In this document: in pieces, positions 16,941 through 24,040 of the stretch
Position numbering within the stretch: position 1 is the first letter of the stretch
Layout of the letters: each line of letters opens with the position of its first letter
Assembly: GCA_020845755.1 (NCBI GenBank)
Contig: JADLFE010000006.1
Coordinates: forward strand, 1-32,118
Reading direction: 5' to 3'
DNA: 32,118 nt
Origin: Phycisphaerales bacterium
GTDB taxonomy: Bacteria > Planctomycetota > Phycisphaerae > Phycisphaerales > UBA1924
Made by a program: the position numbers and the translations under genes
Notes under the pieces: model-generated
Database searches by the model: none
What the model saw: only the letters and a program-made list of their open reading frames with translations
What the model was told of the DNA's origin: nothing

Positions 16941-17195
16941 ATGAACACCACGACCTCTGAGTACCTCGATTTTGACGATTCGGGCGACCTGCACCGCGGC
17001 GGTCGCATTCCGCCCGGGAGCTTCTTTGGCGGCGATGAGCTCCCCCCGGGGACCTTCCACGGAGCGTCGGCGAATTCTCACGAGCCGACCAACTGGGTCG
17101 ACGACCGCGTCGAGATCAATCCGCCGCTGAACCACCCCGCGCCGCAGGCCAAGGGCGAACCTCGGCCCCTGATCCCGCCGGGCAGGCCGGCTTGA
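16941..17195 (+). CDS. Small protein with repeated Gly-Gly motif; candidate modifier or substrate
   Basis: This 84-aa protein starts at ATG 16941 with GAAAGG upstream. Residues 20-41 contain an imperfect tandem repeat, GGRIPPGSFF then GGDELPPGTFH, which places Gly-Gly at 20-21 and 30-31. The remainder is acidic at the N-terminus and Pro-rich at the C-terminus, ending LIPPGRPA. It lacks a visible beta-grasp fold and a terminal Gly-Gly, so it is not an obvious ubiquitin. Yet it occupies the place just ahead of E2-like, JAMM and E1-like genes where a modifier is often encoded. The Gly-Gly sites could be processed by the JAMM peptidase. Coding is likely; the modifier role is speculative. Confidence 0.6.
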   Translation: MNTTTSEYLDFDDSGDLHRGGRIPPGSFFGGDELPPGTFHGASANSHEPTNWVDDRVEINPPLNHPAPQAKGEPRPLIPPGRPA

Positions 17196-17275
17196 TGCTC
17201 GATGACCTTGCTGGCACGGACGCCGGCGCGGAGGGCGCGGGTCCATCACCCGCGTCCTCCATTCTCAAGTTCTGA
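17195..17275 (+). CDS. Micro-ORF, 26 aa
   Basis: ATG at 17195 overlaps the preceding stop as TGATG, and the frame ends with TGA at 17273-17275, directly before the CGGAGG of the next gene. The predicted peptide begins MLDDLAGTDAG and ends SSILKF. The exact fit between two genes, with stop-start overlap, suggests a translated peptide or coupling device. There is no independent evidence of function. Confidence 0.35.
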   Translation: MLDDLAGTDAGAEGAGPSPASSILKF

Positions 17276-17288
17276 TCGGAGGCCACGC

Positions 17289-21706: not shown

Positions 21707-22139
21707 AACCTCATTCCCGCGGTGTCCGGCGGGTTTCTTTTCGTCCGGGGACGAAGAACTAGCGCCTCTGTCCGCCCAACCGACGGGGGGTCATTGCGGA
21801 AAGAAAGAACGGGCGTTCGCGCCACCTCGTGTGTCATCTTCGACTGGTGCGGTCGCGCGTCGAATCGCTGTCGGTGGGCTCGTGATGGAGGCCGTTCGGG
21901 GCACGCCTCATCCCGATTCAATGGAGCGCTGGTCGCGCCGCGGCGAGCGCCTTGCTTCGTGGCTTATGAGCGAATGGCAACGCGAGCAAGCCTGTGTGCT
22001 GGCGAGCAACGCGAGCGGTGCATCGGCTCCTCGCCCGGCGCGCGGGGCCTCCAGGGAGAGCCCTGGCGTGACGTCATCGCACCTTGACTCGGCCGAGCAT
22101 CGTGCCACTCCTGAAGGTGACCCAGGAGGCACCCCATGA
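21684..22139 (+). CDS. Hypothetical protein between ATPase and serine recombinase (151 aa)
   Basis: ATG 21684 is preceded by AGGAGG at an ideal distance, inside the 3' end of the ATPase gene. The frame ends in TGA overlapping the recombinase ATG (ATGA). The product is polar, with one helical core (MERWSRRGERLASWLMSEWQ) and low-complexity Ser/Ala/Pro ends. No family recognised. The strong ribosome-binding site and the double overlap favour a real gene; weak conservation signals such as low complexity argue caution. It might be a recombination directionality factor by position only. Confidence 0.5.
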   Translation: MAMVTALETSFPRCPAGFFSSGDEELAPLSAQPTGGHCGKKERAFAPPRVSSSTGAVARRIAVGGLVMEAVRGTPHPDSMERWSRRGERLASWLMSEWQREQACVLASNASGASAPRPARGASRESPGVTSSHLDSAEHRATPEGDPGGTP

Positions 22140-24040
22140 TCGCCACACCAACCTCCACCCCCGCCGACCCCACCGGTCCCGTAGCCGCTCCCAACTCTCC
22201 AAGCCCGGCAAAGCCCGCCGTGGCGTACCTGCGAAGGTCCACGGACCGCCAGGAGCAATCGCTCGCGGACCAGCGCAAGGAGATCGTGCGCTGGGCGGGT
22301 GCCAACGGCTACCGGCTGGTCGGCGAGTACATCGACGACGCGGTGACGGGAACCAGCGTCCGGGGGCGCTCCGACTTCAAGCGGATGATCACGGATGCGC
22401 CGAAGGGCACGTTTAGCGCCGTGATCGTCTGGAACTCCGACCGCTTCAGCCGCGGCGATGTGACGGAGACCGAGTTCTACCGCCACACCCTGCGGCAAGC
22501 CGGTGTCGCCGTGCTCTCAGTGACCGAGGACTACCTGGCGCGCGAGGGCATCGAAGGGGATGTGCTCCGGACCGTGAAGCAGTTCCAGAACCGGCAGTTC
22601 TCGATCTCGCTCTCCCAGAACACGCTGCGCGGACAGATCTCTTCTGTGCTCGCGGCCTCCGATCCCGGGCGGATGACTCCCTACGGGTATGATCGCGAGA
22701 TCGTAAACCCCGACGGTTCGGTGCTGCACCGTGTCCGCTTTCTTGAGGGCGGTGGCCGCGAAGTTCGTGACGTCGACGGCAAAGTGCAGTCGCGGTTTGC
22801 CAAGGGGCAGACGCTCCGCAAGCCGGGGAAGGAGTGCAGCGCGCGCTTGGTCTTGAGCGACCCGGCTCGCGTGCAGACCGTCCGCGACATATTCCGGATG
22901 TGCATTGAAGGCCTCGGCTGCAAGCGGATCGCGGGCGAACTCAACCGCCGCGGCGTGCTCAGCCCCAAGGGGCGGCTCTGGCAGTTCACCACGGTCAAGG
23001 CCCTGATCGAGAACCCGGTGTACCGGGGCGACATCGTCTGGAACCGCCGCACGGAGTCAAAGTTCTTCGAGGTGCACCGGGGCCGCGCCGACCAGATGAA
23101 GCCGTCCATCAAGTCCGGCCGTATCGAGCGCGTCTCTCAGGATAACTGGATCGTGGTGGTGGACGCCGCGCCGGCGATCGTCGACCGAGCGACCTGGGAT
23201 CGCGCCCAGGCCGCGGCCGCGCGGCGCTCCCAGTGTGCGTCCGGGAAGGGCAAGCAGGTCGGCCGCTGGCTCCTGAGCGGCGTGATGCGCTGCGCCTGCT
23301 GCGGGAGCCCGTTCTGGGGTGTCAGAAAACGCAAGGGCCGCAAGGCGGGGCGCAAGGAGATCGTGACCTCTTACTACATCTGCGCGGGGAGAACCCGCTG
23401 CGGCAAGTCCGTGTGTCCCTATCCGTCGCACGTCAAGGCGGACGACCTGGAGGCGTGGGTGCTGGCCAAGCTTCAGGAACTGGTGATGTCCGACGGCGAG
23501 GGAGTCCATGAAGCGACGGAGCGGTTTATTCGCGCCGCCTGTGAACAGCGGGCATCGGGCGAGGACTGCGGTTCGCTCCGGCGTGAGCTCGCGCAGATGG
23601 AGGCCACCGTGGACGCCCTCGTGACCGGGCTCGACCCCGCGAATCTTCCGCTGGTGAACGAAAAGCTCTCGAAACTCCGTCACCGCCGCGAGTTCCTGCA
23701 AGGTCAACTCCGGGCCGCGGAGTCGGCGGCCCTCGACGAGAACGCCCTCCGCCGGTGGGCGACGGAGCGGCTCACGTTGCTGGGCGAAATGGCGGCGGGG
23801 CGGCGCGACGAGCGTGCCCGCCAGGCGTTGGCCTCGTACGTCGACGAGATCGTGATCGACCCGGCGACCAAGACCGGGGTGCTCGTCGCCAACGGGGGCC
23901 TCCACGGGCCCGACGGGCCCACCGACGGGCCAACGGACGGCGACGGTCCGGGCCAAAAACACCACGACCCGCCGAGGGGCGGGTCGCAGGTTGCGCCAAT
24001 AGCGGGGGCAGGATTTGAACCTGCGACCTCCGGGTTATGA
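22136..24040 (+). CDS. Large serine recombinase
   Basis: The 634-aa protein has a resolvase domain with nucleophile S35 in YLRRSTDRQEQS, followed by the RFSRGD helix region. A recombinase domain (about 190-330) and a zinc-ribbon domain with RCACCGSPF and later CAGRTRCGKSVCPYP (about 385-430) follow, then a coiled-coil segment. This is the integrase architecture of phages and integrative elements. AGGAGG precedes the ATG. Residues after about 590 are a Gly/Pro/Asp-rich tail that reads through the antisense of the tRNA terminator and ends within the tRNA gene (FEPATSGL). The original C-terminus may therefore have been altered by integration. It is coupled to the ubiquitin-like operon by overlapping ends. 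Confidence 0.92.
   Translation: MIATPTSTPADPTGPVAAPNSPSPAKPAVAYLRRSTDRQEQSLADQRKEIVRWAGANGYRLVGEYIDDAVTGTSVRGRSDFKRMITDAPKGTFSAVIVWNSDRFSRGDVTETEFYRHTLRQAGVAVLSVTEDYLAREGIEGDVLRTVKQFQNRQFSISLSQNTLRGQISSVLAASDPGRMTPYGYDREIVNPDGSVLHRVRFLEGGGREVRDVDGKVQSRFAKGQTLRKPGKECSARLVLSDPARVQTVRDIFRMCIEGLGCKRIAGELNRRGVLSPKGRLWQFTTVKALIENPVYRGDIVWNRRTESKFFEVHRGRADQMKPSIKSGRIERVSQDNWIVVVDAAPAIVDRATWDRAQAAAARRSQCASGKGKQVGRWLLSGVMRCACCGSPFWGVRKRKGRKAGRKEIVTSYYICAGRTRCGKSVCPYPSHVKADDLEAWVLAKLQELVMSDGEGVHEATERFIRAACEQRASGEDCGSLRRELAQMEATVDALVTGLDPANLPLVNEKLSKLRHRREFLQGQLRAAESAALDENALRRWATERLTLLGEMAAGRRDERARQALASYVDEIVIDPATKTGVLVANGGLHGPDGPTDGPTDGDGPGQKHHDPPRGGSQVAPIAGAGFEPATSGL
23955..23986 (-). terminator. Rho-independent terminator of the tRNA-fMet gene
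   Basis: On the minus strand the 9-bp stem CGACCCGCC/GGCGGGTCG with a 4-base loop is followed by TGGTGTTTTT. It starts 14 bases after the tRNA 3' end. It lies antisense within the recombinase tail. Confidence 0.75.

What the first reader, a model, noticed from the sequence alone, without database searches (positions are those of the whole stretch)
16941..24040. Ubiquitin-like conjugation operon coupled to a HerA ATPase and a serine recombinase
Seen: JAMM peptidase (17571-18149), E1-like adenylyltransferase (18146-18982), six-CxxC RING-like protein (18979-19497), HerA/FtsK ATPase (19481-21706), a small protein and a large serine recombinase (22136-24040), from the JAMM stop on all joined by overlapping start-stop codons. 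A candidate mini-E2 and a Gly-Gly-repeat protein precede them. Known: E1/E2/JAMM/modifier sets act in bacterial defence (for example the Bil and Bub types). I know of no described version that includes a RING-like factor, a HerA motor and an integrase in one translation-coupled unit. Inference: a mobile modification system controlling a DNA motor, for defence or for element excision.
Basis: partly seen in the sequence, partly recalled or inferred. Interest (0 to 1): 0.88.

Follow-up and report, generated by a model that had tools for sequence, protein, structure and literature searches.

The report
Mini ubiquitin-like operon with DNA motor
Mobile DNA inserted at a planctomycete tRNA gene carries a conserved operon of relatives of ubiquitin-attaching and ubiquitin-removing enzymes next to a gene for a predicted DNA-pumping motor, and the set likely tags a protein with a very short peptide instead of with ubiquitin.

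Summary
The observation largely holds. JAMM, E1-like, 12-cysteine, HerA-type and large serine recombinase genes lie at the stated places, and the 92-aa gene before them has a predicted E2-like fold with conserved His and Cys. Twelve of 12 loci of the close E1 family, window included, carry E2-JAMM-E1-12Cys-HerA in that order. The recombinase is not part of the coupled unit: the gap after HerA is not coding-like, and other loci have other integrases. It belongs to inserted DNA: attB (two sister species), attL, attR and an attP-like site share a 13-bp core at the 3' end of tRNA-Met, and at least 25.6 kb separates the two halves. Two features are unusual. The E1 family has serine where ThiF/MoeB-type enzymes have cysteine (87 of 87 aligned). 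No ubiquitin-fold modifier was recognised; instead a small protein with a PGTFH motif, in tandem copies in some loci, precedes the E2 gene, with a hairpin between them in 9 of 9 loci tested. I predict reversible tagging of a target, perhaps the motor, by this peptide. Conjugation, target and purpose (mobility or defence) are untested. Ubiquitin-like sets on mobile elements are already described; this is a new variant.

The parts
16941..17195 (+). small peptide gene, 84 aa, two copies of a PPG[ST]F[FH] motif; candidate modifier or substrate precursor
   Evidence: homologues upstream of the E2 gene in group A loci; motif count 21 near against 5 elsewhere; GC3 0.82
17230..17260 (+). 13-bp RNA hairpin between peptide gene and E2 gene
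   Evidence: z -2.36; a hairpin in 9 of 9 group A loci tested, z -2.35 to -6.65
17289..17567 (+). mini-E2, 92 aa, His49 and Cys57
17571..18149 (+). JAMM metallopeptidase, 192 aa
   Evidence: Pfam; motif
18146..18982 (+). E1-like adenylating enzyme, 278 aa, Ser180 at the ThiF/MoeB-type Cys position
   Evidence: Pfam; nearest solved chains UBA5, MoeB, ThiF; Ser in 87 of 87
18979..19497 (+). protein with six CxxC pairs, 172 aa, possible binuclear treble-clef factor
   Evidence: 12 invariant Cys; weak FYVE-type match
19481..21706 (+). HerA-type ATPase, 741 aa, with C-terminal LexA-type winged helix
21716..21741 (+). terminator-like hairpin and T-rich tail just after the ATPase stop
   Evidence: the region has no more such patterns than its shuffles
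22136..24040 (+). large serine recombinase (integrase of the inserted DNA); its last codons lie inside tRNA-Met
   Evidence: Pfam, PHROG integrase 3.5e-88
23997..24009 (.). attR core, CAATAGCGGGGGC
   Evidence: compared with attB, attL and attP-like sites
23999..24074 (-). tRNA-Met (cat), the integration site
   Evidence: ARAGORN; same tRNA and right flank in two sister species

Best explanation
Inserted DNA at the 3' end of a tRNA-Met gene carries a conserved operon of E2-like, JAMM, E1-like, 12-cysteine and HerA-type genes, and the encoded proteins likely attach a short PGTFH-motif peptide to a target, perhaps the motor or a partner of it, and take it off again. Steps. (1) Shown by the sequence: insertion at tRNA-Met, from the att sites. 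(2) Shown: the conserved gene set and order. (3) Predicted from fold and motifs: the 92-aa protein is a stripped-down E2, the JAMM is an active peptidase, the E1 can adenylate a carboxyl end. (4) Inferred: the peptide gene, followed by a hairpin, is made in excess over the enzymes; the JAMM trims the peptide at its motif; the E1 adenylates the new end; since the usual cysteine is an invariant serine, the peptide passes directly, or through an ester on Ser180, to Cys57 of the E2. (5) Inferred: the 12-Cys protein helps to choose the target. (6) Inferred: tagging switches or recruits the motor, for the element's own transfer, upkeep or exclusion of rivals.
For: Five-gene order in 12 of 12 close loci. 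E2 fold with His and Cys in 24 of 24 aligned proteins (22 by pattern, P0090 and L022 by eye). Complete JAMM motif in 17 of 17. Peptide motif 21 times in 41.7 kb upstream of E2 genes against 5 times in 960 kb of strand-bases elsewhere; tandem copies at the protein's end in L018, L033, L034 and L070. Hairpin between peptide gene and E2 gene in 9 of 9 group A loci tested. The E2-JAMM-E1 core stands with an ATPase gene in 12 of 12 group A and 12 of 12 group B loci, and with an AAA_2-type ATPase in 5 of 9 group C loci. Group B adds a Replic_Relax-type protein. Att sites.
Confidence: 0.42

Rival explanations
1. It is an anti-phage defence cassette carried as cargo: the HerA-type motor senses or reels in foreign DNA and the conjugation enzymes tag phage proteins or switch the motor on.
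For: The best PADLOC match of the ATPase is mad8 of MADS (8.4e-16), and E1 and JAMM match PADLOC E1-E2 and JAB models. Structural neighbours include HerA of SIR2-HerA and DUF4297-HerA complexes. The left part of the window has DNA methyltransferases and a second mad8-like ATPase.
Against: No nuclease, NADase or CD-NTase was recognised among the operon's proteins; most PADLOC matches are weak; groups B and C pair the same core with other ATPases.
Confidence: 0.27
2. The PGTFH motif is a docking or target tag for E1, JAMM or the motor, not the modifier; the real modifier is an unrecognised small protein of the host or element.
For: A similar motif at the start of the E2 protein in five loci (by eye); the motif is internal in group A; no peptide was found beside group B cassettes.
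Against: Tandem copies at or near the very end of the protein in group C; the hairpin after the peptide gene; no other conserved small ORF was seen upstream of the E2 gene in the comparison of 14 loci.
Confidence: 0.18
3. It is a small-peptide natural-product pathway (RiPP-like): the E1 modifies the peptide itself, as MccB does, and JAMM and the E2-like protein mature it.
For: MccB chains (1e-13) and PaaA (6.8e-11) are among the solved relatives of the E1; a repeat-bearing precursor gene followed by a hairpin is typical of such clusters (recalled).
Against: No exporter was recognised among the operon's proteins; an E2-like protein and a HerA-type motor have no obvious role in such a pathway.
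Confidence: 0.09
4. E1 and JAMM belong to a sulfur-carrier pathway for cysteine, thiamine or molybdopterin.
For: The E1 matches ThiF/MoeB models, and MoeB and ThiF are among the nearest solved structures.
Against: 66.7 bits against a cut-off of 275.25 for ThiF, and far below the MoeB cut-offs; no sulfur-carrier family was matched by the operon's proteins; the genome's best ThiF-family match is elsewhere (C14, 239.3 bits); patchy presence (6 of 392 genomes of the phylum sample, the window's own included).
Confidence: 0.03

Closest known systems
Bacterial E1/E2/JAB operons of Iyer et al. 2006 (PMC1779556, passages read), rows 6a-6e
   Same: E1-like, E2-like and JAB genes together; some sets with tandem Ubl repeats, JAB-E1 fusions and a zinc finger protein; some on ICEs and plasmids
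   Different: here a 92-aa E2, no ubiquitin fold recognised, a HerA-type motor, an E1 family with Ser at the Cys position
FtsH ternary vWA-MoxR systems (PMC7159879, passages read)
   Same: separate JAB, E1 and RING-type E3 genes with an E2 domain, in an operon with ATPases
   Different: there the Ubl is fused to the E2 and to EAD1, with a caspase-like effector; no HerA-type motor or att site in the passages read
Bil (described in PMC11354881, passages read)
   Same: E1, E2, JAB and a modifier in one operon; JAB opens the modifier's end
   Different: Bil's modifier has two ubiquitin-like domains, its E1 two adenylation domains and a Cys domain, its E2 a CEHH motif; none of these is seen here
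CBASS type II E2 and Cap2 (structures 8hsb, 7tqd)
   Same: nearest structural neighbours of the mini-E2
   Different: no CD-NTase was recognised in the operon
PRTRC cassette of plasmids (name seen in PMC7466150, passages read; model TIGR03736)
   Same: a ThiF-family gene in a cassette of mobile elements
   Different: 21.1 bits against a cut-off of 144.75; no ParB recognised in the operon
HerA-partner defence systems (SIR2-HerA, DUF4297-HerA, NurA-HerA structures)
   Same: HerA-type ATPase fold
   Different: no SIR2, DUF4297 or NurA partner recognised; LexA-type winged helix fused; E1/E2/JAMM neighbours

Membership tests
E2 (UBC-fold) superfamily | UBC-like fold | tested here: met
E2 (UBC-fold) superfamily | active-site Cys after a conserved His | tested here: met
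   24 of 24 proteins of alignment A2; a second copy in L075 lacks it; transfer not tested
E1 of ubiquitin-like conjugation | ThiF-type adenylation domain | tested here: met
   Pfam ThiF 4.3e-22, UBA5/MoeB/ThiF
E1 of ubiquitin-like conjugation | catalytic Cys for a thioester | tested here: not met
   Ser in 87 of 87 at the position aligned with the own-genome ThiF-family Cys; Cys93 is present in 76 of 87 but has no known role
JAMM peptidase | HxHx7Sx2D metal site and upstream Glu | tested here: met
   17 of 17, two with Thr for Ser
FtsK-HerA ATPases | P-loop motor domain of HerA fold | tested here: met
Bil | modifier with ubiquitin folds | tested here: inconclusive
   no family match for the peptide; its fold was not predicted
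Bil | E1 with two adenylation domains and a Cys domain | tested here: not met
   278 aa, one ThiF match; no BilD model among the PADLOC matches
Bub pathway | features in Ye et al. 2026 and Gong et al. 2025 | not tested
   papers not held; an ester-using step is recalled, unverified
PRTRC cassette | PRTRC ThiF model over cut-off | tested here: not met
   21.1 against 144.75 bits
Sulfur-carrier adenylyltransferase (ThiF, MoeB) | equivalog cut-off | tested here: not met
   66.7 against 275.25 bits for ThiF
RING/FYVE binuclear treble clef | cross-brace zinc fold | tested here: inconclusive
   RIM2 FYVE-type finger E 0.0096, NOT4 RING 0.36
Serine-integrase integrative element | large serine recombinase next to an att site | tested here: met
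   Pfam domains; attR core 23997-24009
Serine-integrase integrative element | empty site and both ends with a shared core | tested here: met
   attB in L095 and L096, attL on C43, attP-like site on C53; whether one element or a tandem pair is open

The most novel reading that the evidence does not exclude
A conjugation pathway whose modifier is not a ubiquitin fold but a bare peptide of some ten residues, encoded as a repeat precursor, activated by a serine-type E1, carried by a 92-residue E2 and used by mobile elements to control their DNA motors: ubiquitin chemistry reduced to its tail.
Probability: 0.28. Interest if true: 0.93.

Novelty: new variant of a known kind. Interest (0 to 1): 0.77.

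Why it matters
If true, it would ask whether conjugation needs a folded modifier at all, and it would link protein tagging to the motors of mobile DNA. The E2 is far smaller than the usual E2 size of about 150 residues (recalled), and the peptide is short enough to synthesise, so adenylation, transfer and removal can each be assayed directly. It also bears on how ubiquitin systems arose from smaller bacterial parts.

Tried and rejected
Sulfur-carrier reading: rejected. Recombinase and 'small protein' as parts of one coupled unit: not borne out. Gly-Gly repeat as the defining feature of the peptide: replaced by the PGTFH motif. Left att site inside the window: not found; it lies on contig C43. 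Viral contigs: 1 locus for the E1 alignment; none confirmed for the L034 fusion protein or the HerA alignment. Promoter scan of 16700-24200: no match. VIA-align: the N-terminal half of the HerA-type protein is barely tested; I claim nothing about its fold. The hairpin 21705-21755 alone folds no better than shuffles (z 0.47).

Rows dropped or merged before counts. The E1 count leaves out P0087, the weakest of 87 database hits. Loci that repeat one contig were merged (L062=L012, L063=L005, L064=L010, L065=L008, L044=L013, L037=L014, L069=L016, L081=L015); short loci around the same places (among L019-L061 and L077-L080) were replaced by longer stretches. L017 was left out of the peptide count (its contig starts inside the JAMM gene). 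L035, L036, L066 and L067 (E1 matches without a match of the E2 family) and G000's other ThiF loci L001, L003, L004 are in no group. The profiles for the tally were built from some of the same loci, so those match by construction.
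Full report
What is there. The window is a whole contig (C6) of the genome G000. It is likely of the class Phycisphaerae: a genome of the same class (G444) has a contig of the same length as one titled Phycisphaerae. From 16941 to 21706 six genes lie on the + strand: an 84-aa peptide, a 92-aa E2-like protein, a JAMM peptidase, an E1-like enzyme, a protein with six CxxC pairs and a HerA-type ATPase. 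From the E2-like gene to the ATPase the genes are 3 bases apart or overlap, and all six have coding-like third positions (GC3 0.80-0.88). The 'small protein' after the ATPase has not (GC2 0.66, GC3 0.63) and matched nothing in three libraries. A terminator-like hairpin starts at 21716, just after the ATPase stop, but such patterns are no more frequent in the region than in shuffles and the stretch folds no better than shuffles. I read the recombinase as a separate unit.

Conservation. An alignment of 26 E1s found 14 loci in genome contigs and 1 in viral contigs. Group A, the close family (window, L005-L014, L028), has E2-JAMM-E1-12Cys-HerA in this order in 12 of 12; in L010, L011 and L013 the ATPase is cut by the contig end and in L028 it is a fragment. 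A recombinase gene stands downstream on the same strand in 6 of 12: serine type in the window, L008, L009 and L014, tyrosine type in L005 and L006 (L014 by similarity to L008). Of the other six, L007, L010, L011, L012 and L013 end inside or within 250 bases of the ATPase, and L028 has 9 kb more without a match to the recombinases used as queries. Group B (12 loci): JAMM, E1, a further protein with an N-terminal hydrophobic stretch (by sight), a second type of ATPase and a protein of Replic_Relax type in 12 of 12, E2 in 11 of 12 (L017 is cut); of three Replic_Relax-type proteins given to Pfam two matched. Group C (9 loci): E2 in 9, JAMM-E1 fusion in 8, a relative of an AAA_2 ATPase in 5 (in L076 it is 8 kb away). 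The family is rare: E1 matches at 1e-25 in 6 of 392 genomes of the phylum and 8 of 397 of the class, the window's own included; E2 matches in 12 of 150 of one family and 13 of 397 of another class.

The peptide. Upstream of the E2 gene lies a small ORF whose conserved feature is a short motif, E-[PE]-G-[TS]-F-H or P-P-G-T-F-H. The pattern [PESK]G[TS]F[HF] occurs 21 times within 1.5 kb upstream of E2 genes (41.7 kb searched) and 5 times in the other 960 kb of strand-bases; 2 of these 5 are in a true paralogue in L076. It is found near the E2 gene in 13 of 32 loci: group A 9 of 12 (L013 and L014 have only 68 and 244 bases upstream; L028 has none), group B 0 of 11 (L016 has only 108 bases upstream), group C 4 of 9. 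In group C it is repeated at or near the protein's end: twice in L018, whose ORF ends at the motif, twice in L034 and L070, four times in L033. In group A a degenerate copy precedes it (by eye). A hairpin lies between peptide gene and E2 gene in 9 of 9 group A loci tested, with differing sequences (z -2.35 in the window to -6.65 in L011, 100 shuffles each); in L009 eight T follow. This would let the peptide be made in excess, as expected for a substrate or modifier. Against this, a similar motif begins the E2 itself in L005, L007, L008, L011 and L012 (by eye), which suggests docking.

The inserted DNA. tRNA-Met(cat) lies at 23999-24074 on the minus strand, overlapped by the recombinase gene. 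Two species of the same genus (G1142, L095; G1141, L096) have the same tRNA and right flank, 94-98% identical from base 23997 on, and something else to the left. Their first 100 bases left of the tRNA are alike (94%) and occur in G000 on another contig, C43:8773-8883 (95%). There the flank runs into the 13-bp core CAATAGCGGGGGC and then into DNA 84.6% identical over 221 bp to that behind the core on C53, next to a second recombinase gene 75% identical to the window's. So the two halves of the tRNA site are separated by the end of C43 (1.6 kb) and the first 24.0 kb of the window, at least 25.6 kb, and C53 shows an attP-like junction: a free or differently placed copy, or the seam of a tandem pair. 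Beyond about 100 bases both sister flanks hold other recombinase-like DNA (by sight), so their site is empty of this element only. Of 15 other loci scanned, 7 have a tRNA: in L005, L008, L031 and L082 it overlaps or lies within about 130 bases of a gene matched to recombinases; in L066, L068 and L075 it lies beside an ORF not tested in Pfam; 8 have none.

How it likely works. Shown: insertion, gene set, motifs. Predicted: E2 fold, peptidase, adenylation. Inferred: the JAMM trims the peptide, the E1 adenylates it, Ser180 or direct transfer brings it to Cys57 of the E2, the 12-Cys protein helps choose the target, and the motor is controlled. An ATPase gene stands with the E2-JAMM-E1 core in 12 of 12 group A, 12 of 12 group B and 5 of 9 group C loci, which is why I favour control of a motor over tagging of foreign proteins. 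Defence stays a serious rival, because HerA-type motors and such cassettes are both known from defence.

Known or new. Iyer et al. 2006 (PMC1779556, passages) describe E1/E2/JAB operons, some on ICEs and plasmids, tandem Ubl repeats and zinc-finger partners; PMC7159879 (passages) describes sets with a RING-type E3 and ATPases; PMC11354881 (passages) describes Bil; PMC13373217 (passages) notes that Bub operons have not been shown to protect against phage. The Bub papers and the 2011 RING survey are not held. Ten literature searches listed no paper whose title or start of abstract, and gave no passage that I read, describing a HerA-coupled set of this kind, a PGTFH peptide or such a small E2; the library lacks most subscription papers, so this is weak evidence. 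Verdict: new variant of a known kind, with a possible peptide modifier as the bold reading.

Noticed in passing
window 1226-10898: Three DNA methyltransferase genes and a second HerA-like (mad8-like) ATPase; they lie inside the inserted DNA and may be a DNA-modification or defence module.
   Followed up: partly
window 24010-24040; L008 17186-17205: The last codons of the recombinase genes lie inside the tRNA gene, so integration would change the enzyme's C-terminal end.
   Followed up: no
L090 (G000 C53) around 9960: A second recombinase gene, 75% identical in DNA, beside an attP-like junction: free copy, other site or tandem seam.
   Followed up: partly
window 23962-23989, minus strand: The end of the inserted DNA supplies a terminator-like hairpin for the tRNA-Met gene; this end is 96% identical on C53.
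   Followed up: no
L075 9572-10042; L072 8913-9317: Second E2-like copies with an N-terminal hydrophobic stretch; the L075 copy has Ser in place of Cys, like an inactive E2 variant.
   Followed up: no
L008 8854-9978: Two JAMM genes in a row in one cassette.
   Followed up: no
L082 14615-17069; L083 6378-8869: A different JAB-E1 fusion gene with small neighbours on the same stretch as a group C cassette.
   Followed up: no
L067 9462-15888: An E1-family match next to a 1470-aa protein and several small proteins that look like a WXG100/type VII secretion cluster (by sight).
   Followed up: no
L006, L007, L011 upstream, minus strand: A shared ~475-aa HTH plus methyltransferase-like protein divergent from the cassette, a possible regulator.
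   Followed up: no
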